Source of the DNA: Solirubrobacteraceae bacterium
Lineage (GTDB): Bacteria; Actinomycetota; Thermoleophilia; Solirubrobacterales; Solirubrobacteraceae
Direction: 5' to 3'
DNA: 64,000 nt
Assembly (NCBI GenBank): GCA_017882455.1
Contig: JADGPL010000001.1
Location: 124,001 to 188,000, forward strand
Positions 1,004 to 41,385 of the stretch are shown here, in pieces. Every line of letters begins with the position of its first letter. Positions within the stretch are counted from its first letter, which is position 1. Both the position numbers and the translations under genes were made by a program. The notes under the pieces were generated by a model. It was not told the origin of the DNA. It did no database searches and was given only the letters and a program-made list of their open reading frames with translations.

Positions 1004-4000
1004 CTATTTCTTCTTCTTGCTCGTGGTCTTCTTCTTGGCGGCCTTCTTGGGGCCGTAGAGCTTGCGGGCCTTCTTTTCGCAGGCCGCACGCTTGCTCTTC
1101 TGCTTCATCTTCCTACAGACCTTGAGGGCTTTGGCGAGCTTCTGGGCCCGCGTCACCTTGAAGGAGGCCACGCCCTGGCATCCACTCGCCACGATGTTCG
1201 TGGTCTGTTTGATCACCGCGCCGCTCTGGGCGGTGATTTCGGTTGGCATCGTGAGGTTGGCGCCGCACAGGCTGTAGTTCTTGCTCGCCGGCACGTAGGC
1301 CGTGAGGGCCGAGTGCGGCCCGGTCGGCAAGAAGGTTTCGAAGGTCGTGAAGGGTGCGTCCGGCGCCGATTCGAAGCGCGAATAGGTGATGCCTTTTTTG
1401 ATGTCGGTCTTGCCGTCGAGGATCAGCGTGATGCCTTCACCCTGGAGCACGAACTCGACGTCCGGGAATGCCGCGCCGCCGTGGGAGACCAGGTAGGCGG
1501 GTCCCGTCAGCGGGCTCCCCAGCACCGGCGTGTGGATGACCGCGTAGCCGATGTTCGAGCCTTCGTCGCAAGTCGCAGGGTTGGCTTCGAAGACCGCCGC
1601 AACGCAGGCTTTCTGGATCGTGCTGAGGCGCGAGGGGAGCTGGAGCGGCAGGGTCAGGTCGACCTTGTGGATGTTCGCCTGACCGAGACCGCTCGATTCG
1701 ACCTTCACGCTGAGGCTCGCGCCGTTGGCTTTGCTCGCCTGCGCGCCGACGCTGGCGGTCAGCTTGGGCGTGAAGGGGAGGCTCGCGCAGTTGCCCACCT
1801 GGTAGGGGGTGGAAACGGCCGCGCTTGCCCCTTCATAGCCGCCCAGCGTGCCCGTGACGCTCGTGGGGGTGCAGTTGGTCGGGTTGAACTCGAAGCCTTC
1901 GCGGTCGACGGTCACGTTCAGTTCTTTGATCTGCGCGGGAGCGCCTTTGACGATCTGCGGCAGCGCGTCGCTCGTGATCGTGGCGGCCGCCGTGTTGGGA
2001 TCGATCGTGATGGTCGATCGGACCGGAATGTCACCGAGGTTGAACGGGCCGGCTTTGGCGTGCGTGACGGCGAGGATGCCGAACGGCGCACCCCTGTAGG
2101 GGCCGGTCAGATACACGTCACCTCCGAGCGAGACGGGCTTGCCGCCGAGCCCTGACAGCGCGGTCGAGTGCCCGATGTGGCTTTCGGGGCCGCATTCGTC
2201 TTTGGATGCCTGCGGTTCCGGACACGGCGTCACGGACGCGAGCATCGCGGCGGCGCCCGGAGGCAGGTGCATTTCGATCGTCTTCAGCGCCTGGTTGCCG
2301 TCCGGCCGTTTGATGTTCAACGTGAACGGGGCGAAGCTACCGGCCTGGACGTTGGTCGGTCCGGCTTCGAAGCTGGGGCCGAACGGAAGCGAGCTGCCGG
2401 GGCAGGCGCTGCCGTTGGGGCCCGAGGTGATCTGGAAGCTCGAGCCCCTTTCGGTCACGGTTTCTCCCGACCAGGTCGTGAAGTAGGCCCGGGCTCCGTA
2501 GCCGCCGCAGAACGCGGGCGTGGCCTGGGTGGCGCGTTCGGTGTTGAACAGGTGCAGGGTCAGCGTTTCGAAGGGCGTCTGGGGCGAGTTGGCGAACCTC
2601 GAGACGATGTGGCCGGTGTTCGGGTCGATCTTCACTTCGCCGGCGAGCTTGACCAGCACCTTGGAGTCTTCTTCTTCGGCCACCACGTAGAGCACCAGCG
2701 GCGACTGGAAGGGGTTGGTGTCCTGTTCGGCGAGGTAGACCGCGCCCTTCAGTTCCTTGGGCAGCAGCGGCGTCTTGATGTTGACGGTGCCGATCTTGGC
2801 GGCGTCGGGGCACGTGGCCGCGGCCGACGTGAAGTGCTGTTCGCCGAGCTCCGTTTCGAGCGCCGATCCGGTGTCGGAGCCGGCGCCGCCGAAGCCCGCC
2901 TGACCCACGCCGCATGTCTCGAGGCCGGTCGCCGCGCCAGCGGCTGTCTGCATGCCCACAGGCAGTTCGAGCGTCGTCGAGCGAATGTCGGCCTCGGCCC
3001 TGCCTTCGGCTTCGAGCGTGGTCTTCTGGGGCATGTTGACGTTGACCGTGAGGCCTGTGGGAGTGCTCGCCGCGTGCTTGTCGGGGCTGACTTCGATCGA
3101 CGGGTCGAAGGGCAGTTCGTCGCAGCCGGTGAGGGCGCTGGGAAATTCGTAGGGCACCTTGAATGAGCTGGGTGCCCCTTCTTCTTTGAGCTCGAGGGCG
3201 TTCCACGCTTCCCCCGTTGCGACCGTCTGCGGAGCGCGTTCACACGAGGTGGGCAGCATCAGGAACGGTGAGGGCTGCGAGATCCCCGACGGTTCGCACC
3301 CGAGGGGCGGCTTGAAGCCCGCCACGTAGCCGCCCCGGCCGAGACAAGCCCAGCCGCGGGCGTGATCGTGACGCGGGTCGCCCGGCACGCCCCAGAACGT
3401 GACCCTGCTTCCCAGAACCTGCACGGACTGGGAGGCGTAGTGGATGCTGACGTTCACTCCATAGTCTTCGCCGGTGCGAACCGATGTGTTGAGGACGATC
3501 GGGACGTGCGCCACCTCGAAGCCGAACTTGGCGGGCTCGCCCGGGGCGGGTACGAGGTTGAAGACCGGGACGATGTAGTCCTCGTAGAAGAGCGTGATCG
3601 GGTCGTTGATGGTGACCGCCGCCACCCCGATGGCGGTGTCGGGTGCACAGTTGTTGATGGATTTTTCGTCCCCGGCACCGAAGTCGACATCGGAGCACTG
3701 CGGCACCGCGTTGGGATTGCCCAGCAGGCCGGCCGGCAGCTTGAATTCGAGGTTCTTCTGCAGAGCCGGCGCCGACGGCAGCGGGTGTTCCTGGAAGGGA
3801 TACGATTCGTAGGTCTGGTTGAGATTGAAGGTCGTCGTCAGCTGGAAGGGGTGGCTGCCCGCCTGGGTGGCGGATTCGAATTCTTCGGTTTCGGGCGTGA
3901 GTTCATAGGATTCGACCCCGAACCTGGAGGGTTCACCGTTGACTTTGAGCTTCTGGTTGAGCGAGTCGCTCGACGGAGTCGCTCCACCGCCCGTCACCGT

Positions 4001-4480
4001 TACGTCGTTCTCGGGTTCCGACGCGACGGTGTTGTTCGTCTTGACGAGCATTTCGATTTCGAGCGCTTCGTATTCCGCGAGACCGCCGACGTAGGTGCAT
4101 TCGATCTGTTTGGGCGAGGCCAGAGTGCAGGTGAATCCAGCTTTGTTCAGTTCCGATCCGGCCGCCCCTGGGACGCTGCGACTCGTGGCTACTATCTTCG
4201 TGGCCGTCACTTCCCCGGTGAGGGTGTCTGTGATCGTGACCGGTTCTGCGACGGTGCTGTGCGCTTCGGCGTCGCCGATGTTGCTGGCCGTGACCATGAT
4301 CATGCCTTCGCCTTTGAGCGGCAGGTTCGTCGGCGCCGGACGCGATTCGAGCCTCCAGTGCGGTGCTGCGGGAGCCGCGGCAAGGGCCGGGGCAGCACCG
4401 AGGAGCGCCACCAGCAGCGTGCCCAGCGCCAGCCCTGTGCCGAGCGAACGGCTTCTTATCCGTTGCGGTCGGCTCATCAT
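1004..4480 (-). CDS. Giant secreted protein with LPxG/IG/TP repeats and lysine-rich tail
   Basis: 1158 residues. A signal peptide occupies residues ~1-35 (hydrophobic stretch ending APALAAA). Residues ~45-150 resemble a DUF11-type extracellular beta domain. The rest holds about four copies of a module: an LPxG-like strand, paired cysteines, an S/A-x-IG motif, TPLL/TPVL and a VYL segment, starting near residues 248, 505, 770 and 975. The last ~60 residues carry TRAQKLAKALKVCRK followed by an ACEKKARKLYGP segment and poly-lysine. The same tail ends the preceding gene, whose stop overlaps this start in ATGA, so the two form an operon. No enzymatic motif is visible; a cell-surface structural or adhesive role is inference. 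Confidence 0.75.
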   Translation of the reverse strand: MMSRPQRIRSRSLGTGLALGTLLVALLGAAPALAAAPAAPHWRLESRPAPTNLPLKGEGMIMVTASNIGDAEAHSTVAEPVTITDTLTGEVTATKIVATSRSVPGAAGSELNKAGFTCTLASPKQIECTYVGGLAEYEALEIEMLVKTNNTVASEPENDVTVTGGGATPSSDSLNQKLKVNGEPSRFGVESYELTPETEEFESATQAGSHPFQLTTTFNLNQTYESYPFQEHPLPSAPALQKNLEFKLPAGLLGNPNAVPQCSDVDFGAGDEKSINNCAPDTAIGVAAVTINDPITLFYEDYIVPVFNLVPAPGEPAKFGFEVAHVPIVLNTSVRTGEDYGVNVSIHYASQSVQVLGSRVTFWGVPGDPRHDHARGWACLGRGGYVAGFKPPLGCEPSGISQPSPFLMLPTSCERAPQTVATGEAWNALELKEEGAPSSFKVPYEFPSALTGCDELPFDPSIEVSPDKHAASTPTGLTVNVNMPQKTTLEAEGRAEADIRSTTLELPVGMQTAAGAATGLETCGVGQAGFGGAGSDTGSALETELGEQHFTSAAATCPDAAKIGTVNIKTPLLPKELKGAVYLAEQDTNPFQSPLVLYVVAEEEDSKVLVKLAGEVKIDPNTGHIVSRFANSPQTPFETLTLHLFNTERATQATPAFCGGYGARAYFTTWSGETVTERGSSFQITSGPNGSACPGSSLPFGPSFEAGPTNVQAGSFAPFTLNIKRPDGNQALKTIEMHLPPGAAAMLASVTPCPEPQASKDECGPESHIGHSTALSGLGGKPVSLGGDVYLTGPYRGAPFGILAVTHAKAGPFNLGDIPVRSTITIDPNTAAATITSDALPQIVKGAPAQIKELNVTVDREGFEFNPTNCTPTSVTGTLGGYEGASAAVSTPYQVGNCASLPFTPKLTASVGAQASKANGASLSVKVESSGLGQANIHKVDLTLPLQLPSRLSTIQKACVAAVFEANPATCDEGSNIGYAVIHTPVLGSPLTGPAYLVSHGGAAFPDVEFVLQGEGITLILDGKTDIKKGITYSRFESAPDAPFTTFETFLPTGPHSALTAYVPASKNYSLCGANLTMPTEITAQSGAVIKQTTNIVASGCQGVASFKVTRAQKLAKALKVCRKMKQKSKRAACEKKARKLYGPKKAAKKKTTSKKKK

Positions 4481-7400
4481 CCCCTGCTCCCGGTCGAGCT
4501 TTTCTTGGCGGTCGATTTGATCGGCCCATATTTCTTGCGTGCCTGCTTTTCACACGCAACGCGCTTGCTCTTGCTCTTGTTCTTCTTGCACGCCTTCAGC
4601 GCTTTCGCGAGCTTCTGGGCGCGCGTCAGCGGTTTCGTGGCTGGCTTGGCGGATTCTTTGCTGCCGAGGACCTGCACCTGCCCGAGGACGTTGCCGGGGC
4701 CCGAGAACGTCGCGGTCGCAGCCGCCGGGGAGGCGGGCGCAGAGTTGTAGGCGCCCTGGCACGCTTCGTTTTCACATGACTGCACCGGCACGGGCGGAGG
4801 CGGCGGACAGGGCGAGGACGCTTCGCAGATGTGAGCGTCATATACGTCGAAGTTGCCGTCCACGTCCTGGACCCCGAGTTTGGCCGCGGTGAGGAAGAAC
4901 ACGTCGTTGCCGCTCGCGCTGGCGTCGAGGAAGGCGGATTCGTGTTCGGAGGTGCCCGAGGAGATCAGCCCGACGCAGCCGCCTTCGCTGTGGCAGGCAC
5001 CCACTTCGCTTGGCTGGTACTCGTACACGTTCTCGATTCCGATCTGCTGTTCTTCCCCCTTCACCGTGACGGTCTTGGTGGCCTTCGCCAGCGGCACGAG
5101 CGCATCGGCGCTGTTGAAGAACAGCCGACCGCTGTTCGAGAGGTAATGCGACTGGTAGAGCGCGCGGTTTCGTTCGAGCGATGTCCATCCCGGAAGGCTC
5201 CCCGCCAGCCACCGGTCAGCCCCGAATGCTGGACCCCAGACCTGGGACCTGTCGACGACCAGGCCGAGACCTTCGCCGGACCCTCCTCCGTTGTTGGATC
5301 CAACGTCGAACACGCCCGTCGGTCGTGCGCCGGTCGGGTTGCACGAGGCGCAGATCAGATCCTGGTTGACAGCGTCATAGAGATAGACCTCCTCGTCGAG
5401 TCGTTCGCCGGGGGCCTTGCTGCTCACGTCTTCGTTGTCGTAGCCGGTCAGGCTCCTGTTCGACATGAACGCCAGGTATCGGCCGTTGGGTGAGACGCGC
5501 GCGGTCATGTAGCCGAGATCGCCCGGGATGCCGGCGCCACCCCAGTCGGGCCGATCTTGCGAGGAGAGGACGGCGAGGAGCGTGGTCGGCGACCAGGTGC
5601 TGCCGTTGAAGTGGCGCATGTAGAGGTTGCACGTCGTGGTGGCCGGTTGTACTTCTTCTTCGGTGGTGCAGCTACCCCGGGTCGCACCCGGCGTGAGCGC
5701 CCCGTTGGCCGCGAAGTAGACGTAGGAGCCGTCTTCGCTCGCGCCGATCACACCGCCGCTCACCGTATGGTCCACGAGCAGATACCCGCTACCGCCGTTC
5801 GGGCCTTCCGGAGTCAGGTCCCTGAGCGTGCCCGTCAGTGGCGAGCCAGGAGCGTTGCCGCCGCTCAGTTCGTAGACGTATAGATCGGCCTCTTCGTTCA
5901 CGCCGGCCCCGGCCTTCGAATCGGCGGTCAGCCGCTGCGGATCGGTGAAGAACACCTTCGACCCGTCGGCACTGGCCGTCTGGTAGATCGCGTTGGCCTT
6001 GCCTCCGCCCGCGGGCGCGCCGGGCTGAGGCAGGTCGAGCTGGAGCGTTTCCTGCGTCACGGTGTCCCGCACGTAAAGATGCGCCGCGCTCGTCCAGAAG
6101 ACGCGCGAACCGTCGTTCGAGATCGCGTGCCTGACGTCCTTGTTGGCGACGCCGCCCAGTCCCACAAGCCCTGGTTCGACGTGTGTTTCTCCCTGAGCCT
6201 TCGGGAGGACGCTGATGAGTTCGAGCGGCTGTCCGGGACCCGACCACTCGTACAGACCGGGGGCGGCCGTGAACGAGTCGAAGGCGACATGGCTCAGGTC
6301 GGGCGTGGCTCCCACGAATTCGAGGCCTTCAGAGAGACCGCCGCCAAACGGCACGCCACCTGGAGCATTCGCTTTGGTGACGAGCGCGAGGTAGCCCGGG
6401 TTTGCCGGACTCATGAGCGTACCGTTGTGCACGGCCGCGTTGTAGTTGCCTTCTTCGGAGGACGTCGGCTGCAGCGGCGCGTCGTCACGCAGGTAGATCG
6501 TCTTTTCCTGAGCTTCGCCCGTTGTCAGCGGGGGCGAGAGCGGCGGCTGTTCCAGCGTGCCGGTGTGCGAGTTCCCCGACGACGGTTCGACGAGCGAGAG
6601 CGCGAGGTTGGGAGAGAAGAACTGATACTCGGGGGCCGCTCCGCTCAGAATGCCAGTGCCGGCCCTGTTGGGCGTGACGATGTCTTTCGAGAGCCATCCC
6701 TGCGAGCCGCGAATCGAGAGGATCTGGGTCAGTTCCGGGCTGCGGTTGCCTTCGGGTTCGTCCTTGGCCGGCATCGGCCCGTCCGCCACGAAGCTGATCG
6801 AGCGGCCATCTTCGGAAGCTTGGATCACGCCGCCTTCTTTGGTGATCGCTTCTGGTTCCGCGCCGTCCTTTTCCGGCGGAGAGACCATTTCCCATCCGCG
6901 CCCGTCGGGAAGTCCGCTGAGCAGCACAAGGATCGCGAACGTCTGTTCGGAGCTCGTCACCGTCCCGAATTTGTTTTCCGCGATGACCCGATAGCGGTAG
7001 CTACCGGGGGGCAGGCTCTGCACTTCCACGCTCGCCTGCTGGTTGCCGAAGCCTGCGGCTATGTCGGCCGACGCCGTCTTGGTGCAGGGCGAGGGCGTGG
7101 CGGCGCAGCTGCCGGGTCCGTATTCGAAGTAGTAATGGGTGTCGGCGCCGCTCGGATCGATCGTGGCGTTGAGCTGGGTCGCATTCGTGGCCGGCGCTTT
7201 CGGCGCGAGGCTCTCGGCCGAGGTGGCTTCGATCGCCGGCGGCCCCGGCGCTTCGCGCGCGAACAGGTAGACCTTGTTGGACGCGGCGTCGGCTACGTAC
7301 ACCGAACCGTCGGCGGGATCCACCGCAACGGCGTCCCCTTCGGTCAGGCCGGGGGCGCTCAGGCGCTGGATCAGCGTTCCGCCGGCGCTGAACACCCCGA

Positions 7401-8319
7401 CCGTGTTGCGGGGTTTGCCGGCGACGGTCGTGGTGTTGTCCACGTACACGGAGTTGTCGGCGAGGTCTACGGCCACGGCGGTGCTGTTTTCGTTGTCGAG
7501 TTCCGCTTTCAGCACTTTCCCCGTGGTGCCGAGCTTCGCGACGACCGCGAGTTCGGTTCGTTCTTCCTCGGCCCATCGTTCGCGAGCGCTCGAGCCTTCG
7601 GTTGCTTCGGCGCCGGCATAGAAGTTGCCTTCGGAGTCGAGCGCGAAGCCCGGCCTCGGCTTGACCACTTCGGTCTGCACTTCACCCTGGAGTTCATTCG
7701 CCACGGCGTCGCTGAACTTCAGGATCGTGTGATTCGCCTGGTAGACGAGCAGCGTTCCCTGCGGGTCGATCGCCATGCCCTCGACCGTTTCGAGGGTTTC
7801 CTTTTCGCCTTCGCTCAGGAATTTGTGAATTTCGCCGAGCGGAGCGCCTTCGGCGCTGAACTTGTAGATGTACTTGCCGTTGTTGCCGACGACATACACG
7901 TCGCCTTTGGAGGGATCTCCGGCTTCCGTCGAGTTGTCCACGGCGATAGCCCCGACTCTCGCGACGGTGAATTCGGACACGAATTCCTCGTTCGTGATTT
8001 CGCCTTCTGTGCCGCGCACGGGCTTGAACTCCTCGACCCGTTTGTTTTTGTGGTCGGCCACATAGACGTTGCCGGTGGAATCGTTCACGGCCACCCCGAC
8101 CGGTTCCGATAGCTGCCCGGCGCCTTTGCCGGTTCCGCCGAAGGCGAAGCTGAAGGTGTGCCCTCTCTGGCTCAGCGCCTGCGCTGGGACACTCCACACC
8201 AGCAAGGCCAGGATGAGAGCCACGAAGAACGCAAACGGGCTCAGCGCCTGTCGGACGACACCCGCGCGACCAGCATCGCTGTCAACCCGCCCTTGACCCC
8301 TCATCCCCTGCGCGTACAT
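4477..8319 (-). CDS. Giant secreted beta-propeller protein (NHL and TolB/PD40-like repeats)
   Basis: 1280 residues. The N-terminal hydrophobic segment (~residues 27-49, ending VPAQA) is a signal peptide or anchor. Residues ~55-350 contain NHL-type blades (GVAVNDSTGNVYVAD and similar repeats). Residues ~360-465 look like a fibronectin-III-like sandwich (THYYFEYGP ... YRYRVIAENKFG). From ~480 to ~1160 follow TolB/PD40-type propeller repeats (GRSISFVADG, SHVAFDS, SRVFWTSA, SKVFFTDP, SYVYFAANG, RYLAFMSNR). The C-terminus repeats the TRAQKLAKALKACKK ... ACEKQARKKYGP tail of the downstream gene. ATG at 8319 is used here; an internal ATG at 8304 is possible. Function is unknown; a surface ligand-binding or scaffold role is inferred. 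Confidence 0.75.
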   Translation of the reverse strand: MYAQGMRGQGRVDSDAGRAGVVRQALSPFAFFVALILALLVWSVPAQALSQRGHTFSFAFGGTGKGAGQLSEPVGVAVNDSTGNVYVADHKNKRVEEFKPVRGTEGEITNEEFVSEFTVARVGAIAVDNSTEAGDPSKGDVYVVGNNGKYIYKFSAEGAPLGEIHKFLSEGEKETLETVEGMAIDPQGTLLVYQANHTILKFSDAVANELQGEVQTEVVKPRPGFALDSEGNFYAGAEATEGSSARERWAEEERTELAVVAKLGTTGKVLKAELDNENSTAVAVDLADNSVYVDNTTTVAGKPRNTVGVFSAGGTLIQRLSAPGLTEGDAVAVDPADGSVYVADAASNKVYLFAREAPGPPAIEATSAESLAPKAPATNATQLNATIDPSGADTHYYFEYGPGSCAATPSPCTKTASADIAAGFGNQQASVEVQSLPPGSYRYRVIAENKFGTVTSSEQTFAILVLLSGLPDGRGWEMVSPPEKDGAEPEAITKEGGVIQASEDGRSISFVADGPMPAKDEPEGNRSPELTQILSIRGSQGWLSKDIVTPNRAGTGILSGAAPEYQFFSPNLALSLVEPSSGNSHTGTLEQPPLSPPLTTGEAQEKTIYLRDDAPLQPTSSEEGNYNAAVHNGTLMSPANPGYLALVTKANAPGGVPFGGGLSEGLEFVGATPDLSHVAFDSFTAAPGLYEWSGPGQPLELISVLPKAQGETHVEPGLVGLGGVANKDVRHAISNDGSRVFWTSAAHLYVRDTVTQETLQLDLPQPGAPAGGGKANAIYQTASADGSKVFFTDPQRLTADSKAGAGVNEEADLYVYELSGGNAPGSPLTGTLRDLTPEGPNGGSGYLLVDHTVSGGVIGASEDGSYVYFAANGALTPGATRGSCTTEEEVQPATTTCNLYMRHFNGSTWSPTTLLAVLSSQDRPDWGGAGIPGDLGYMTARVSPNGRYLAFMSNRSLTGYDNEDVSSKAPGERLDEEVYLYDAVNQDLICASCNPTGARPTGVFDVGSNNGGGSGEGLGLVVDRSQVWGPAFGADRWLAGSLPGWTSLERNRALYQSHYLSNSGRLFFNSADALVPLAKATKTVTVKGEEQQIGIENVYEYQPSEVGACHSEGGCVGLISSGTSEHESAFLDASASGNDVFFLTAAKLGVQDVDGNFDVYDAHICEASSPCPPPPPVPVQSCENEACQGAYNSAPASPAAATATFSGPGNVLGQVQVLGSKESAKPATKPLTRAQKLAKALKACKKNKSKSKRVACEKQARKKYGPIKSTAKKSSTGSRG

Positions 8320-33507: not shown

Positions 33508-33720
33508 ATGACTGACGTTGAGGCTCATATCACCGGCACGGTATGGAAAATCGAGTGCGCCGTCGGCGACACCATCGAGGAGGGCGACACTGTGGCCATC
33601 CTCGAGTCGATGAAGATGGAGATGCCGGTCGAGGCAGAGGACTCGGGCACGGTGACCAAGATCCTCTGCGAGGAGGGCCAGGCGGTCAACGAGGGCGACA
33701 CCCTCGTCGTGCTCGAGTAG
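33508..33720 (+). CDS. Stand-alone biotin carrier protein (biotinyl domain)
   Basis: 70 residues from ATG 33508 with GGAGG 6 nt upstream. It is a minimal biotinyl/lipoyl domain with Lys36 in ESMKMEMP as the biotinylation site. Such single-domain carriers serve acyl-CoA carboxylases or related enzymes whose biotin carboxylase lacks the domain. The carboxyltransferase at 20090 is a possible partner; no biotin carboxylase is in the window. An enoyl-CoA hydratase follows 58 nt downstream and biotin synthesis begins at 34637. Confidence 0.9.
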   Translation: MTDVEAHITGTVWKIECAVGDTIEEGDTVAILESMKMEMPVEAEDSGTVTKILCEEGQAVNEGDTLVVLE

Positions 33721-34636: not shown

Positions 34637-35797
34637 ATGGCGTCGCTGATCACTCGCGAGGAGGCACTTCGACTCGGCGAGATCGAGGACCACGACCAGA
34701 TCGAAGCGCTGATCCAGCGCGCCTGGGAAGCCCGCGTGGAGCGCTTCTCGGACTCGACCGACATGTGCTCGCTGGTCAACGCCAAGTCTGGCGGCTGCGC
34801 CGAGGACTGCGGCTTCTGCGCCCAGTCGCGCTTCGCCGATGCCGAGACCCCGATGCACGCGATGATGGAGCCCGAGCAGATCCTCGAGCATGCCCGCGCG
34901 GCCGAGGCGGCTGGCGCCCACCGCTTCTGCATGGTCACCCAGGGCCAGGGGCTCTCCAGGCGCGACTTCGAGAAGTACCTCGACGGCGTGCGCCTGGTCT
35001 CAGAGCACACCAACCTCAAGCGCTGCGCCTCCGTGGGGCACATCTCGGCCGAGCGCGCCAGGGCGCTGCGCAAGGCGGGCATCCAGCGCGTGCACCACAA
35101 CGTGGAGACCGCGCAGAGCTACTACGACGAGGTCACGAGCACGGTTCGCTACGAGGGTCGCCTGCGCACCATCGACGCGGTCCGCGAGGCCGGCCTGGAG
35201 ACGTGCGTGGGGGGCATCCTAAACCTCGGCGAGACCCGCGCCCAGCGCGTCGAGATGGCGTTTGAGCTCGCCGCGATCGACCCGACGAGCGTGCCCGTCA
35301 ACATGCTCAACCCGCGCCCCGGCACCAAGTTCGGCGACCGCGACTACATGGACCCGTGGGAGGCGGTCAAGTGGATCGCGATCTTCCGCCTGATCCTCCC
35401 CAATGCGCTGTTCCGGCTGTGCGGTGGCCGCGTGGAGAACCTCGGCGAGCTGCAGCGCCTGGCCGTAAGGGCGGGGATCAACGGCGTGATGATGGGCAAC
35501 TTCCTGACCACGCTCGGCAACGAGCCGGAGGCCGACCGCGAGATGTTCGAAGAGCTCGGCCTGAACGTGGCGCGCCAGCCCGACAACGCCGCCAACCCCC
35601 GCCCCGACAACCGCTCTGGGTGGCTGGAGGGCGAGACTCCGGACGTGGTCGAGGATCTGCTCGAGGCCGAAGCCGCACCCGGGCCGGTGGACCTCGGTGT
35701 GCGGCTGTGGGACCCCTCGACCCAGCTCCGCTATCACGCCAAGCGCTCCGTGCCGCCCCGCCCGGACGGGGCCCCCAACCGCGTGCCGGTCGGCTAG
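34637..35797 (+). CDS. bioB: Biotin synthase
   Basis: 386 residues from ATG 34637 (TTG 34628 is possible). The radical-SAM cluster is Cys54-x3-Cys58-x2-Cys61 (SGGCAEDCGFCAQS), followed by TQGQGLS, HNVETA, GGILNLGET and NMLNPRPGTKF. It inserts sulfur into dethiobiotin using two Fe-S clusters, and so depends on Fe-S delivery. The core ends near residue 330 (GNFLTTLGNEP). About 50 further residues (WLEGETPDVVEDLL ... RLWDPSTQLRYHAKRS) form an extension not usual for BioB. First gene of bioB-bioF-bioD. Confidence 0.95.
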   Translation: MASLITREEALRLGEIEDHDQIEALIQRAWEARVERFSDSTDMCSLVNAKSGGCAEDCGFCAQSRFADAETPMHAMMEPEQILEHARAAEAAGAHRFCMVTQGQGLSRRDFEKYLDGVRLVSEHTNLKRCASVGHISAERARALRKAGIQRVHHNVETAQSYYDEVTSTVRYEGRLRTIDAVREAGLETCVGGILNLGETRAQRVEMAFELAAIDPTSVPVNMLNPRPGTKFGDRDYMDPWEAVKWIAIFRLILPNALFRLCGGRVENLGELQRLAVRAGINGVMMGNFLTTLGNEPEADREMFEELGLNVARQPDNAANPRPDNRSGWLEGETPDVVEDLLEAEAAPGPVDLGVRLWDPSTQLRYHAKRSVPPRPDGAPNRVPVG

Positions 35798-35808
35798 CCG
35801 GCTCAGCG

Positions 35809-37212
35809 ATGAGCGAGATCGAAGCGCGCCTGCAGGAGCTGGAGCGACTCGGCCTCGGCCGGCGCCTGCGCCTGATCAGCGGGCCGCAGGGGCCCACGGT
35901 CCTGCTGGAAGGCAAGCCGGTGCTGCTGCTCTGCTCCAACAACTACCTCGGGCTCGCCGACCATCCTCGGGTGCGCGAGGCAGCGGCAGACGCTGCGATG
36001 CGCTGGGGAGTCGGGGCGGGCGCCTCACGTCTGGTGTCGGGGACGATGACCATCCACGGTCGCCTGGAGGAGCGCCTCGCGGCCTTCAAGCGCAGCGAGG
36101 CATGCGTCCTGTTCGGGTCGGGATACCTGGCCAACCTCGGCGTGATCGGCGCCCTGGCCGGTAGCGGAGACGCAATCTTCTCCGACGAGCTCAACCACGC
36201 CTCGATCGTGGATGGCTGCCGGCTCTCGCGAGCAGAGGTGATCGTCTACCGCCACCGCGACGTCGAGCACCTCGAGTGGAGCCTGCGCCGTCATGGCGGC
36301 GGGCGCGACGGCCAGGGACGGCGGCTGATCGTCACCGACTCGGTGTTCTCGATGGACGGCGACGTGGCGCCGCTGGCACAGCTGGCCGACGTGGCCGACG
36401 CCTATGACGCACGCCTGGTGGTCGACGAGGCGCACGCGCTCGGCAACCTCGGGCCCGACGGACGCGGCGCCGTGGCCGAGGCCGGGCTGGAGGGCGAGGT
36501 CGACGTGGTGATCGGCACCCTCGGCAAGGCGCTCGGCTCCTATGGCGCCTACGCGTGCGCGAGCGCCGAGATGGTCCGCTACCTGATCAACACGGCGCGC
36601 TCGCTGATCTTCTCGACGGCTCCCTCCCCGCCCGCCGTGGCTGGAGCGTTGGCCGCGCTGGACCTCCTGCGCGAGCGACCCCATCGCGTCCAGAGACTGC
36701 GCTCCAACGCCCGCGCGCTGCGCAGGGCGCTCGCCGCCCAGGGATTCCCGATACCGGAGAGCGAGATGCAGATCGTGCCGCTGATCGTGGGCGAGGAGCG
36801 AGCCGCGCTGCGCCTCTGCCAGGAGGCCATCGAGCACGGCGTATTCGCTCAGGCAATCCGACCTCCCACGGTGCCCAGCGGGACCTCGCGCCTGCGCCTG
36901 ACGGCGATGGCCTCCCACACGGCCTCCGAGCTGCGCATGGCCGGTGAGCTGTTCGGCAAGCTCGCCCGCCGGATCGGCCTCGATCCCGCCTCGATGGTGC
37001 CCCCTCACAGCGAACGCGAAGCGGCACCCGAGCCGGCCGGGTTCGAGGCGGAGCGCTTCGAAGGCGAGCCGGTGCTCGCACGACGCCCGGGCGCACCCTT
37101 CGACCTCGAGCGCGAAGGCCGGCCCGTACCCGCGGCCGCGGCCGCCCAGACGGCTCCGCCCGCGCCGTTCGATCTCGAGCGCGAGCTGTCCTCGGGCGCA
37201 CGCGCGGCCTAG
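35809..37212 (+). CDS. bioF: 8-amino-7-oxononanoate synthase with C-terminal extension
   Basis: 467 residues from ATG 35809, 11 nt after bioB. The PLP fold is complete: SNNYLGLADHP, ASRLVSGT, DELNHASIVDG, Asp206 in VVDEAHALG and PLP lysine Lys240 in GTLGKALGSYGAY. It condenses pimeloyl-ACP (or -CoA) with alanine. The catalytic part ends near 383. The last ~85 residues are Pro/Ala/Glu-rich and contain the heptad PFDLERE twice, an extension not typical of BioF. A glycine C-acetyltransferase is an alternative, but the bio context decides. Confidence 0.92.
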   Translation: MSEIEARLQELERLGLGRRLRLISGPQGPTVLLEGKPVLLLCSNNYLGLADHPRVREAAADAAMRWGVGAGASRLVSGTMTIHGRLEERLAAFKRSEACVLFGSGYLANLGVIGALAGSGDAIFSDELNHASIVDGCRLSRAEVIVYRHRDVEHLEWSLRRHGGGRDGQGRRLIVTDSVFSMDGDVAPLAQLADVADAYDARLVVDEAHALGNLGPDGRGAVAEAGLEGEVDVVIGTLGKALGSYGAYACASAEMVRYLINTARSLIFSTAPSPPAVAGALAALDLLRERPHRVQRLRSNARALRRALAAQGFPIPESEMQIVPLIVGEERAALRLCQEAIEHGVFAQAIRPPTVPSGTSRLRLTAMASHTASELRMAGELFGKLARRIGLDPASMVPPHSEREAAPEPAGFEAERFEGEPVLARRPGAPFDLEREGRPVPAAAAAQTAPPAPFDLERELSSGARAA

Positions 37213-37226
37213 CGCGGCCACGCATA

Positions 37227-37943
37227 GTGCGCGGCCTGTTCGTCACGGGAACCGACACGGGCGTCGGCAAGAGCGTTCTGAGCGCATGCCTGCTGGCCGC
37301 GATGGCCGCCGCCGGCGAGCCGGTGCGCGCCTACAAGCCCGTGCTCACCGGGCTGGACGACGAGACTGACGCGACCGGCACACCCGGGGCCGGCGCGCGA
37401 TGGCCGCCGGACCATGAGCTGCTGGCGGCAGCTTCGGGGATGCGGCCCGAGCAGGTGGCGCCGTTGCGCTTCGGGCTCGCCGTCTCGCCGCACCTCGCCG
37501 CGGCGCTGGCGGGCGAGCGGATAGAGCCGAGCGAGCTCGTCGCCCTCGCGCGCGGGCGCGGTCGCGAAGGGACGCTGATCGTGGAGGGCGTTGGCGGCCT
37601 GCTCGTGCCCCTCGCGGACTCCTACACCGTGCTCGACCTCGCCGCAGACCTGGCCCTGGGGCTGGTGATCGCGGCACGGCCGGGCCTTGGCACGATCAAC
37701 CACACGCTGTTGACGCTGCAGGCGGCGCGCGCCGCCACCCTGGACGTGCGCGCCGTGGTGCTCACGCCTTGGCCCTTCCAGCCTGGAGAGATCGAGCGGT
37801 CGAACCGGGACACGATCGCGCGCCTCGGCAGCGTCGAGGTCCACACGCTCGCCGCCCTTCCCGGCCCTGATCCAGCCGCGATGGCGGAGGCCGGTGAGGT
37901 CCTGCCATGGCGGCGGTGGCTCGGCGAGCATGCGATCGGCTGA
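37227..37943 (+). CDS. bioD: Dethiobiotin synthetase
   Basis: 238 residues, GTG start 14 nt after bioF. The Walker A-like loop is FVTGTDTGVGKSVLSA, followed by YKPVLTG and the EGVGGLLVPL motif, all diagnostic. It closes the ureido ring of dethiobiotin from DAPA, CO2 and ATP. Third gene of the bio operon; the DAPA-forming bioA is convergent at 40138-41385, separated by a secreted-protein gene. Confidence 0.94.
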   Translation: MRGLFVTGTDTGVGKSVLSACLLAAMAAAGEPVRAYKPVLTGLDDETDATGTPGAGARWPPDHELLAAASGMRPEQVAPLRFGLAVSPHLAAALAGERIEPSELVALARGRGREGTLIVEGVGGLLVPLADSYTVLDLAADLALGLVIAARPGLGTINHTLLTLQAARAATLDVRAVVLTPWPFQPGEIERSNRDTIARLGSVEVHTLAALPGPDPAAMAEAGEVLPWRRWLGEHAIG

Positions 37944-38063
37944 CGCGCCCGAGGTGCCGCGTGTGCTTCTCTATGTGCCTGTATCGCGCCCGGCTGGCCG
38001 CAGCTACCGGCGCCAACCGCTGCGATGTCGTCGATCCCCCACCCCACTCCCAGGAGGCCGTTC

Positions 38064-40118
38064 GTGCTCTCAGGTCGTGCCCGCCTCACGCTGCTGCTGA
38101 TCGCTGCCTCGCTGGTGCTCACAGGAGCGCTCGCGTCGAGCGCCGACGCGGAAGTCACCGCCTCGCAGATCACCTCGCCGGCCGATCCGACGCTGCCGCC
38201 GCTGGTCAAACAGCCGCTGAAAGCGACGAGCAGCCAGACGCTGACCGTGAGCGGGACCACCACGACGAACGACGCGAACGCCTCCGACACGGTGGAACTG
38301 GGGTGCTTCTACACGGGCGTCGAAGGAGCCAAGAAGGAGACCGTCCTCAAGAAGGTGAACGGCGAAGCCCTCACGATCCCGGTGAGCACCTTGGACGGGT
38401 CGTTCACGACCTCGGAAGCTGCGCTTGAAGGCCTGCTGCACCAACAGCCGTGCATGTTGCGGGCCGTTCCCCCAGCGACCCCGGAAACAGCGTCGGTGAC
38501 GGCATTCGCCGGTCCGCGGCTCGGCGACGCCGGGATTGCGACCGTGGGCACCGAAGCGAGCAAGCTCACGGACGACGAACTGTCAACCACGACCTTGCAG
38601 GGCTACTGGCTATGGAAGTCCGCAGGCAGTTGCGGACCATCCAGCAATGTGTTCGAACCGTCCAGCTTCCAAAGGGCCGTGCCGCCGATCTTCCATTGCG
38701 CCGCCACCCTGTCCGAGACGACCGAATTGAAAGAACCGTCGATCGTCGTAGACGCCCACAACGGCTACGCCGTGGCCGCAGCATCCACCATCAACGCGGG
38801 CGCTGTCGGGCAGCCGTTCCTGGAGCTCGGGGCTCCAAGCTTCAACGAAGCTACCGGCGTCCTCACACAGACCGAGACCGAGCCCATCGTCCACTGTGAG
38901 AAGGCCGGGGGCGAACCTGTGGACGTGCCCGAACCGACCTCCGCCGAATGCGTCCAGTTCGCCTCCACGGGCGTGGAGCTCGTCCGCACAGTGACGACCG
39001 GCGAAGGTGGTCTGCAGGCAACGGTGACCGACGAACTCAAGAGCACCGAAGCGAGCGGCGCTCACACGATCACCCTGCGCTACCGCGAGCAGCAGGGCGG
39101 CATTGAACCCAGCTATAAGTTCCCGGGCGAATCGGCGTTCAAGCGGTACAAAGCCACCGAATCTGCGCCCACCGGGTCATCGGCTCCCGAGACCGTGTAC
39201 TTCCAGGCGAGCGAAGAATCGGCGGAACCGGAAAGCCCGCATGAAAACCCTCGGGGGGCGATCACCCTGTCGGCAACCCCGACCGCCGTCAAGTTCGCGG
39301 GCCCCAACGCCTTCGAACTCGTCTACTCCGGACAAACAGTCCCCGCCTCGGGCGCGTTGACCCTCACCCAGGCGCTCTCGCAGACCCGAGCCGCGGAACC
39401 ACCAACGCTGAGCGTCGCCTCGCCGGTCTCCGGCACGACGGTGTCCACTTCAACGATCAACGTCTCCGGGAGCGCCTCCGGCAACTTTGGGATCGCCTCC
39501 TTGAGTGTGAACGGCTCCGCCGTCACCGTCGCCAACGACGGCACCTGGTCCACGAGCGTTCCGCTGAGCAGCGGCGCCAACACCATCTCGGCTGTGGCGA
39601 CGGACAACGCCGGCAAGACCACATCGCGCTCCATCACCGTCACCTACACCCCCCCGGTCACCGAAACCCCGGCCGGCAAAACGCCCCCGGTGGAAACACC
39701 GCCGAGCTCGACGCCGGTGCGCGCACGCGCCTCGCTCTCGGGCAAGGTCACCGGCACCGGCGGCAAAGTGGCCTACACCCTGGCCTGCGTTGGCACGGCG
39801 GGGGAGCGCTGCAACGTGACGGTGACGCTGTACACCGTCGAGAGGCTGCGCGCTGGGAAGCTCCTCGGCCTGACCGCGAGCCAGAAGACCCGCACCAAGC
39901 GGATCGTCCTCGCCTCGGGCACGCTGTCGATCCCGGCGGGGCTGCGCGTGAACGTGTCGGTGAAGCTGGACGCCACCGGGCGCAAGCTGCTGGCCCGCTT
40001 CGGCAAGATCCCCGCCCGCCTCAGCACGATCCTGAGCGCGAGCGCGGGAGCGCCCGCGGAAACTGTGGTCGCGCAGAACGTGACGATCACGCCCGTCAAG
40101 AAGCCCAAGAAGAAGTAG
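38064..40118 (+). CDS. Secreted protein with bacterial Ig-like domain
   Basis: 684 residues from GTG 38064, chosen because AGGAGG ends 6 nt upstream and a clean signal peptide follows (RARLTLLLIAASLVLTG ... ADA); ATG 38025 would add 13 odd residues. Residues ~30-440 are Thr/Ser/Glu-rich beta-type sequence with six or so cysteines. Residues ~443-530 form an Ig-like domain (SGSASGNFGIASLSVNG, SSGANTISAVATDNAGKT), then a Pro/Thr linker and a final all-beta domain (KVAYTLACVG ... NVTVTLYTV). The C-terminus is basic (PVKKPKKK). It interrupts the bio cluster; no link to biotin is visible. Confidence 0.75.
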   Translation: MLSGRARLTLLLIAASLVLTGALASSADAEVTASQITSPADPTLPPLVKQPLKATSSQTLTVSGTTTTNDANASDTVELGCFYTGVEGAKKETVLKKVNGEALTIPVSTLDGSFTTSEAALEGLLHQQPCMLRAVPPATPETASVTAFAGPRLGDAGIATVGTEASKLTDDELSTTTLQGYWLWKSAGSCGPSSNVFEPSSFQRAVPPIFHCAATLSETTELKEPSIVVDAHNGYAVAAASTINAGAVGQPFLELGAPSFNEATGVLTQTETEPIVHCEKAGGEPVDVPEPTSAECVQFASTGVELVRTVTTGEGGLQATVTDELKSTEASGAHTITLRYREQQGGIEPSYKFPGESAFKRYKATESAPTGSSAPETVYFQASEESAEPESPHENPRGAITLSATPTAVKFAGPNAFELVYSGQTVPASGALTLTQALSQTRAAEPPTLSVASPVSGTTVSTSTINVSGSASGNFGIASLSVNGSAVTVANDGTWSTSVPLSSGANTISAVATDNAGKTTSRSITVTYTPPVTETPAGKTPPVETPPSSTPVRARASLSGKVTGTGGKVAYTLACVGTAGERCNVTVTLYTVERLRAGKLLGLTASQKTRTKRIVLASGTLSIPAGLRVNVSVKLDATGRKLLARFGKIPARLSTILSASAGAPAETVVAQNVTITPVKKPKKK

Positions 40119-40137: not shown

Positions 40138-41385
40138 CTACGTCAGCAGCGCCCGCGCAGCGGCCACCATCGCGCTGGTCACCTGCGCCAGATCCTGCTC
40201 GTCGATCACATAGGGCGGCATCGCGTAGATCAGGTCGCGGAAGGGACGCAGCCACACGCCGTGCTCGATCGCGGTGGCGGTGGCGGCCGCGACGTCCACG
40301 TCGCGCTCGAGCTGGATCACGCCGATCGCTCCCAGCACACGGACGTCGGCCACGCCGGGAAGCTCGCGAGCGGGCTCGAGCCCGGCACGCAGCCCCTGCT
40401 CGATCGCCGCAACCCGCTCGCGCCAATGACCATCGGCCAGCAGCTCCAGCGATGCCAGCGCCACGGCGCAGGCGAGCGGGTTGCCCATGAAGGTGGGCCC
40501 GTGCATCAGGCCTCCGCCCTCCCCCGAGGAGATCGCGTCGGCCACGGCCGGCGTGCAGACGGTGGCGGCGAGCGTCATGTAGCCGCCCGTGAGCGCCTTG
40601 CCCACGCACATCACATCCGGACTCACCCCGGCGTGCTCGCTGGCGAACATCGCGCCCGTGCGCCCGAAGCCGGTGGCGATCTCGTCGAGCACCAGCAGCA
40701 TCTCGTACTCGTCGCACACCGCCCGCAGGTGCGCGACGCAGGCGGGCGAGTGAAAGCGCATGCCGCCCGCTCCCTGCACCACCGGCTCGACGATCACCGC
40801 GGCCAGCTCGCCCGCGTGGGCCGCGGCCAGCTCTCTGACCTGCTCGGCCCACGCCTCATCCAGACCCGCGTGGAATCCGTCGGGGGGGCGCTCGGCGAAC
40901 ACGTGCTGCGGAAGAACGCCCGCGAACAGGCTGTGCATGCCGCCCACCGGGTCGCACACCGCCATCGCACCGGCGGTGTCGCCGTGATAGCCGCCCCGGA
41001 CGGTCAAGAGCCGGGTGCGCTCCGTTCGTCCCTGCGCGTGCTGGTACTGCAGGCAGATCTTGATGGCCACCTCGACCGACACCGAGCCCGAGTCGGCCAG
41101 GAAGACCCGCTCGAGCCCCGCGGGCGCGATCTCGGTGAGGCGCTCGGCGAGGCGGATGGCGGGCTCGTGGGTGAGGCCGCCGAACATCACGTGCGCCATC
41201 CGGCCCAGCTGATCGGTCACGGCATGATCCAGGGCCGGGTGGCGATAGCCGTGGATGGCGCACCACCACGAGGCCATCCCGTCGATCAGCTCGCGCCCGT
41301 CGGCCAGGCGCAGCCGCACTCCCTCCGCCGAGACCACCGGCAGCGAGGGCATCGACGCCGGCAGCGCCCCGTAGGGGTGCCACAC
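40138..41385 (-). CDS. bioA: Adenosylmethionine-8-amino-7-oxononanoate aminotransferase
   Basis: 415 residues from GTG 41385; the family usually has a few more residues before WHPY, but no upstream start fits. Diagnostic segments are [55 protein letters not shown] and PLP lysine Lys263 (VGKALTGGY). It makes 7,8-diaminopelargonate from KAPA with SAM as donor. It is convergent to the secreted-protein gene (19 nt) and 49 nt after rubredoxin on the same strand, so likely transcribed with it. Confidence 0.93.

What the first reader, a model, noticed from the sequence alone, without database searches (positions are those of the whole stretch)
34637..37212. BioB and BioF both carry unusual C-terminal extensions; BioF has a duplicated PFDLERE motif
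About 50 extra residues in BioB and ~85 in BioF, with PFDLERE twice in a disordered, Pro/Ala-rich context. Repeated short motifs in tails often bind partners; both could dock to BioD or to each other and channel unstable intermediates.
Basis: partly seen in the sequence, partly recalled or inferred. Interest (0 to 1): 0.5.

Follow-up and report, generated by a model that had tools for sequence, protein, structure and literature searches.

The report
Conserved C-terminal peptide on BioF
In one order of soil actinobacteria, the biotin enzyme BioF ends in a floppy tail of very variable length that carries a short conserved peptide and finishes in two alanines, which looks like a built-in handle for a partner protein or for the cell's protein-destroying machine, though neither has been shown.

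Summary
bioB (34637-35797) and bioF (35809-37212) encode bona fide enzymes with C-terminal extensions, and PFDLERE occurs twice in BioF (37096-37116, 37165-37185). The extensions are not a quirk of this genome. Across 105 BioF orthologues of the same order the tail varies from almost nothing to about 146 residues and cannot be aligned. Even so, 53 of 105 carry [FY]D.[EQL] (shuffles: mean 2.3, maximum 8), usually 8-15 residues from the end, and 80 of 105 end in Ala-Ala-COOH (other ORFs in the same loci: 18 of 211). Codons vary synonymously, so selection acts on the protein. Outside the order neither feature is seen (0 of 73 and 0 of 11 BioF). BioB has its own order-specific tail with W[DN]P..QLR (83 of 88). 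AlphaFold2 leaves the BioF tail disordered and undocked. My best mechanism is a bipartite handle: an FD docking motif plus an ssrA-like Ala-Ala C-degron read by ClpX. This genome's tmRNA tag ends in ALAA, and its ClpX keeps the Ala-Ala-reading motifs. No interaction or degradation was tested. Real, not found described in the library searched, a new variant of a known kind.

The parts
34637..35797 (+). bioB, biotin synthase, 386 aa, with order-specific C-terminal tail
   Evidence: TIGR00433 351 bits, cut-off 225; BATS and Radical_SAM; translation
35600..35623 (+). BioB conserved RPDNRSGW segment (residues 322-329), ordered in the model
   Evidence: R322, P323, D324, N325, R326 and G328 invariant, W329 nearly invariant, in 60 rows; mean pLDDT about 90 for residues 321-330
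35669..35740 (+). BioB disordered stretch (residues 345-368), linker that runs into the WDP motif
   Evidence: pLDDT under 50; linker hypervariable in length
35708..35731 (+). BioB WDPSTQLR motif (residues 358-365)
   Evidence: W358, P360, L364 invariant in 60 rows; W[DN]P..[QA]L[RKH] in 83 of 88 BioBs of loci L001-L113; in the two wider sets 10 of 35 have it and the 25 without are outside the order or, for L169, a second cluster
35809..37212 (+). bioF, 8-amino-7-oxononanoate synthase, 467 aa
   Evidence: TIGR00858 456 bits, cut-off 426; translation
37015..37209 (+). BioF disordered tail (residues 403-467)
   Evidence: pLDDT under 50 for 403-456 and 458-467
37096..37116 (+). BioF first PFDLERE copy
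37165..37185 (+). BioF second PFDLERE copy, the C-terminal one conserved across the order as [FY]D.[EQL]
   Evidence: 53 of 105 orthologues
37198..37209 (+). BioF C-terminal ARAA-COOH
   Evidence: Ala-Ala end in 80 of 105 BioF against 18 of 211 other ORFs
37227..37943 (+). bioD, dethiobiotin synthase (AAA_26), next gene of the run
   Evidence: PF13500 E 2.4e-35; the name bioD is from context
40138..41385 (-). bioA-like class III aminotransferase
   Evidence: PF00202 E 3e-120; the name BioA is from context

Best explanation
In this order of Actinomycetota (Solirubrobacterales, by the titles of named relatives), BioF carries an order-specific disordered C-terminal appendix that works as a bipartite handle. 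Part one is an FD motif, consensus [AG][PVIL]-F-D-x-E-[RA]-[ED], used in one to several copies to tether a partner. Part two is a free Ala-Ala-COOH end that enters the ClpX pore like the ssrA tag, giving a weak, probably adaptor-boosted C-degron that lets the cell adjust the amount of the enzyme that commits pimeloyl thioester to biotin. Shown here: the motif, its anchoring near the C-terminus, the Ala-Ala end, protein-level selection, predicted disorder, order-specificity, and the presence of a ClpX with the needed motifs and of a tmRNA tag ending in ALAA. Inferred: that ClpX binds it, that BioF is turned over, and that the FD motif binds an adaptor.
For: Ala-Ala-COOH in 80 of 105 BioF and [AV]A in 91 of 105, with alanine codons GCC/GCG/GCA/GCT. 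Controls: BioB 8 of 77, BioD 8 of 86, other ORFs in the same loci 18 of 211. The Ala-Ala end persists in 31 of 52 BioFs without a strict FD motif and on very short tails such as ...VPVAA and ...SLALAA, as expected if about five residues suffice for ClpX. FD motif in 53 of 105 tails against shuffle mean 2.3, maximum 8; in the last 20 residues, 50 of 105 against 1 of 211. Internal FD copies exist without the Ala-Ala, so the two parts are separable. The tail is predicted disordered with no confident docking on BioF itself. This genome's tmRNA tag is ADSHEYALAA (L131). Its ClpX has AGYVGEDV, SITRDV and GGRKHP, the motifs that I match to the six residues that read Ala-Ala-COO- in E. coli according to PMC7652416 (passages seen). 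[quoted passage not shown]
Against: No degradation or binding was measured. Position -3 is usually Arg or His, not Leu, so the degron would be weak. 14 of 105 BioFs end in neither AA nor VA. Covariation with the tmRNA tag is poor. In genus g17 the two tags read end in ALV (G039, G045) and all five BioFs end in VA. In the three other genomes whose tag departs from AA (G011 ALAV, G029 ALVA, G035 ALV) BioF still ends in AA. No adaptor is known and none was sought. FD could serve any partner. A degron kept across an order on a biosynthetic enzyme would be unusual.
Confidence: 0.38

Rival explanations
1. Partner docking or metabolon. The FD motif, with the Ala-Ala carboxylate as part of its binding surface, docks BioF onto another biotin enzyme or onto the supplier of pimeloyl thioester, and the BioB WDPSTQLR tail does the same for BioB.
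For: Disordered linker plus conserved short motif, often duplicated. BioB has the same architecture, linker plus invariant W, P and L. Both tails are confined to the same order. The 5 tail-less in-order BioBs sit beside BioFs without FD or Ala-Ala.
Against: BioB tails persist where BioF lacks FD. The Ala-Ala end is conserved more widely than FD, which a simple FD docking site does not explain. BioF and BioB are not consecutive enzymes. No receptor was identified.
Confidence: 0.33
2. C-terminal sorting signal for a compartment, such as encapsulin cargo loading or an unknown body.
For: A variable linker plus a conserved terminal peptide is the layout of cargo-loading and PTS1-type signals (recalled). 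Fungal BioF has a peroxisomal targeting signal (recalled; only the search listing and abstract start of PMC3713238 were seen). The genome does encode an encapsulin.
Against: The encapsulin's neighbour is a short protein, which I take to be a ferritin-like cargo from its sequence (recalled), ending in the SLGIGSLRG type of loading peptide (that this is the canonical form is recalled). BioF has nothing like it. No other protein with FDxE near an in-frame Ala-Ala stop was found in the genome among the six pattern matches.
Confidence: 0.07
3. Drift: Ala/Pro-rich tails accumulate in G+C-rich genomes, and the motifs are composition or shared ancestry.
For: The linkers are near random: identity 0.28 against a shuffled baseline of 0.23. 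Alanine makes up 22% of tail residues. Relatedness inflates all the counts.
Against: Chance Ala-Ala from this composition would be about 5%, against 76% observed. FD exceeds all 1000 shuffles. The motif is 79% identical while the neighbouring linker is near random. FD is spread over families f1, f2 and f4 with at least 12 changes on the tree.
Confidence: 0.07
4. Self-regulation in cis: the FD motif folds back onto BioF and gates its active site.
For: The tail leaves the folded body at about residue 400 and could reach it.
Against: AlphaFold2 with 64 sequences leaves the tail under 50 pLDDT. The linker length varies about tenfold.
Confidence: 0.07

Closest known systems
ssrA tag and other Ala-Ala C-degrons of ClpXP substrates
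   Different: Encoded on a metabolic enzyme, preceded by R, H or E rather than L, joined to an FD motif not found in the tag; degradation not shown
8-amino-7-oxononanoate (KAPA) synthase BioF, TIGR00858
   Same: Whole catalytic body, above the curated cut-off
   Different: Adds a disordered tail with a terminal peptide; most solved KAPA synthases are 384-404 aa; 0 of 73 relatives outside the order show the peptide
BioB-BsaP, the auxiliary protein of mycobacterial biotin synthases and its Pseudonocardia fusion (PMC11099021; abstract, passages and sections 10 and 11 read)
   Same: Both are actinobacterial additions to BioB, as a downstream gene or a fusion
   Different: The BioB tail here has no cysteine, while BsaP has three conserved ones, and this BioB keeps the cysteine that BsaP-dependent BioBs lack (C130, invariant, taken by me as the equivalent of E. 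coli Cys128)
Encapsulin cargo-loading peptides
   Same: Linker plus conserved C-terminal peptide
   Different: Unrelated sequence; the genome's encapsulin neighbour carries SLGIGSLRG

Membership tests
KAPA synthase (TIGR00858) | Score over the curated cut-off | tested here: met
   456 bits against 426.45
Biotin synthase BioB (TIGR00433) | Score over the curated cut-off | tested here: met
   351 bits against 225
Ala-Ala C-degron of ClpXP | Ala-Ala-COOH at the protein end, conserved above background | tested here: met
   80 of 105 against 18 of 211
Ala-Ala C-degron of ClpXP | Accessible, unstructured C-terminus | tested here: met
   Predicted only: pLDDT under 50 over 403-456 and 458-467
Ala-Ala C-degron of ClpXP | A ClpX in the cell with the residues that read Ala-Ala-COO- | tested here: met
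   GYVG, TRDV and RKH motifs in L253, matched by motif, not by structural alignment (residue roles from PMC7652416)
Ala-Ala C-degron of ClpXP | BioF C-terminus follows changes of the tmRNA tag end | tested here: inconclusive
   Follows in genus g17, not in G011, G029, G035
Ala-Ala C-degron of ClpXP | The protein is degraded by ClpXP through that end | not testable with these tools
   Needs a degradation assay
Partner-docking short linear motif | Motif conserved above a disordered, divergent linker | tested here: met
   0.79 against 0.28 identity, 66 pairs
Partner-docking short linear motif | A receptor that binds it | not testable with these tools
   No complex prediction available; only single chains could be folded
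Encapsulin cargo | Loading peptide of the type used by the genome's own encapsulin neighbour | tested here: not met
   The neighbour ends with SLGIGSLRG...; the BioF tail lacks it
BioB-BsaP fusion | Three conserved cysteines in the added part | tested here: not met
   No Cys in BioB residues 312-386; feature from PMC11099021

The most novel reading that the evidence does not exclude
An entire bacterial order encodes an ssrA-mimicking, adaptor-tethered C-degron on the committed enzyme of a vitamin pathway, with the number of FD copies setting the gain, so that biotin synthesis is controlled by proteolysis. The parallel BioB tail would be the second half of the same control or assembly system.
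Probability: 0.22. Interest if true: 0.75.

Novelty: new variant of a known kind. Interest (0 to 1): 0.52.

Why it matters
It gives two housekeeping enzymes, thought to be uniform across bacteria, an order-specific disordered tail with conserved short motifs that survives while everything round it is scrambled. That is a clean natural signal for a missing binding partner. If the Ala-Ala end is a degron, biotin synthesis in these bacteria is controlled by proteolysis. If it is a docking site, biotin enzymes assemble. Either can be tested with a 15-residue peptide.

Tried and rejected
Encapsulin cargo: an encapsulin is present, but its neighbour has a standard-looking loading peptide and BioF does not. 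BsaP-like fusion: no cysteines in the BioB tail. Known domains in the tails: none in Pfam or NCBIfam at E up to 1. Overlap with the next gene's start as a cause of the Ala-Ala end: last codons are mostly GCC or GCG, which leaves no ATGA overlap. Shine-Dalgarno constraint as the cause of the GWGD end of some BioBs: glycine and aspartate codons vary. The same motif elsewhere in the genome: PFDxER[ED] only in bioF; FDxE followed by an in-frame Ala-Ala stop only in bioF among six pattern matches. Folding the tail back on BioF: not predicted. tmRNA-tag covariation: one genus for, three genomes against. Published account: searches for KAPA synthase with C-terminal extension, BioF/BioB/metabolon, BioF/ClpX and Thermoleophilia markers listed nothing on these tails. 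Of papers I saw only listings, abstract starts and find-passages, except the abstract and sections 10-11 of PMC11099021. PMC8512704 was opened with a term search that found nothing.

Rows dropped before counting: of loci L001-L113, eight are not in the 105 BioFs: L002-L004 (other enzymes), L006, L073, L076 (cut by a contig end), L091, L112 (match did not start within 4 residues). BioB counts are of 77 complete rows or of 88 hits with a stop codon. In one search the FD label also admits D at the last position (56 rows rather than 53). The other-ORF control (211) is a crude gene call by base composition of codon positions, from stop to stop, and may include bioB, bioD and other neighbours. Alignments A2 and A3 held 64 of the 105 BioFs and 60 of the 77 BioBs (A2 and A3 give the window's own protein in place of L001).

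Full report
Observation. The window's bioB (34637-35797) and bioF (35809-37212) are ordinary enzymes by their bodies: TIGR00433 351 bits and TIGR00858 456 bits, both over the curated cut-offs. Both carry C-terminal extensions that match no Pfam or NCBIfam model at E up to 1. BioF has PFDLERE at 37096-37116 and 37165-37185, and these are the only two matches of the P-F-D-x-E-R-[ED] DNA pattern in the 3.3 Mb genome. bioD follows at 37227 and a class III aminotransferase, taken as bioA, lies at 40138-41385 on the other strand.

Relatives. The BioF protein was searched in 61 genomes, the own one and 60 relatives, in the family (106 of 146 genomes with a match at E<=1e-90) and in the class (60 of 219). 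Regions were fetched. Of 113 loci, 105 gave complete BioFs. Tail length runs from almost nothing to 146 residues and the linkers are near random: in 12 same-genus-cluster proteins (66 pairs) linker identity is 0.28, the shuffled baseline 0.23, and the last FD octamer 0.79. In 53 of 105 tails [FY]D.[EQL] is present; 1000 shuffles gave a mean of 2.3 and a maximum of 8. The last copy usually starts 8-15 residues from the end whatever the linker length. Anchored on F the consensus is [AG][PVIL]FDxE[RA][ED], with a further preference for I, V or L at -5, R or H at -3 and Ala-Ala at the end. Among 18 proteins of the genus cluster, 14 have two or more FD copies and 4 have one.

The Ala-Ala end. 80 of 105 BioFs end in Ala-Ala and 91 in [AV]A, with four alanine codons in use at the last position. 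Controls: BioB 8 of 77; BioD 8 of 86 and other coding-like ORFs of the same loci 18 of 211; and 1 of 43 crude gene calls in the window. [FY]D.[EQL] lies in the last 20 residues of 50 of 105 BioFs and 1 of 211 other ORFs. Fisher tests are extreme but ignore relatedness. 31 of 52 BioFs without the strict FD motif still end in Ala-Ala. On a tree of the BioF bodies the FD label needs at least 12 changes and is present in families f1, f2 and f4, so it is probably old with repeated loss or gain.

Limits of the trait. Of 80 BioF loci from titled records, 79 gave a complete 3' end: 6 from the order or near it (5 end in Ala-Ala, 3 have FD) and 73 others with 0 and 0. Of 20 further regions, 19 gave a complete 3' end: 8 of the same order (6 Ala-Ala, 1 FD) and 11 others with 0 and 0; one of the 11, L251, is a distant BioF homologue from a genome of the own family. 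The 73 others include Solirubrobacter soli's second cluster (L169), whose BioF and BioB both lack tails.

BioB. After the catalytic body comes a conserved RPDNRSGW segment, then a linker of variable length, then W[DN]P..QLR. W358, P360 and L364 are invariant in 60 rows. The motif is in 83 of 88 in-order BioBs; the other five (L090, L091, L108, L112, L113) neighbour BioFs without FD or Ala-Ala. The 25 other BioBs without the motif in the wider sets lie outside the order or, for L169, in a second cluster. AlphaFold2 gives an ordered wrap to about residue 344, a disordered linker 345-368 and a poorly placed end. The tail has no cysteine and BioB keeps C98, C130 and C190, so it is not of the BsaP-dependent kind described in PMC11099021 (sections 10 and 11 read; the matching of residue numbers is mine).

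Mechanism. AlphaFold2 with 64 sequences gives BioF a confident body and a tail under 50 pLDDT. A disordered tail with a terminal peptide is a handle. Two readers fit. (a) ClpX: the own tmRNA tag is ADSHEYALAA (L131), and the own ClpX has the GYVG, TRDV and RKH motifs. PMC7652416 (passages) states that the terminal Ala-Ala is the most important element of the ssrA degron, that other proteins are targeted by similar ends, that a five-residue degron suffices for GFP, and that losing the preceding Leu costs only modestly. The Ala-Ala end being more widespread than FD, and present on very short tails, favours this. (b) A partner protein reading FD. FD copies inside the tail cannot be C-degrons by themselves, so I read FD as the tether in either case. 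Against (a): the residue before Ala-Ala is usually Arg or His, and tag covariation is one genus for and three genomes against. I put (a) at 0.38 and (b) at 0.33.

Novelty. No paper on these tails was found in searches (PMC open-licence full text only). The features are a new variant of known kinds: short linear motifs and Ala-Ala C-degrons on known enzymes.

Noticed in passing
33508-33720 +: Free-standing 70-residue protein with an ESMKM site (MTDVEAHITGTVWKIECAVGDTIEEGDTVAILESMKMEM...), which looks like a lone biotinyl or lipoyl domain, two genes upstream of bioB. No family search was run on it.
   Followed up: partly
bioB 3' ends: L020, L031, L095, L097, L099, L100, L105, L106, L242: BioB proteins of different families end in GWGD-COOH with synonymous codon variation. 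In genera g8 and g9 they end SG[ML]P[FH]G[HL] instead, so BioB may have lineage-specific C-terminal peptides of its own.
   Followed up: partly
L036, L037, L057, L059, L081 (genus g35 BioF tails): Extra conserved internal segment resembling LWD[DE]G....WVE.R.PA in addition to the FD copies.
   Followed up: no
L256 (G000:C44:117000-128000), encapsulin at 4938-5747 -, neighbour at 5744-6214 -: The genome encodes an encapsulin next to a short protein ending in a SLGIGSLRG loading peptide.
   Followed up: partly
tmRNA tags of G039, G045 (ALV), G035 (ALV), G011 (ALAV), G029 (ALVA): tmRNA tag peptides in this order sometimes depart from the usual ALAA end.
   Followed up: partly
38025-40118 +: 697-residue protein with a Glucodextran_B domain and a lysine-rich end lies between bioD and the bioA-like gene.
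   Followed up: no
1004-4480 -: 1158-residue open frame without Pfam match, ending in a lysine-rich stretch; a second long frame at 4477-8319 - has a similar end.
   Followed up: no
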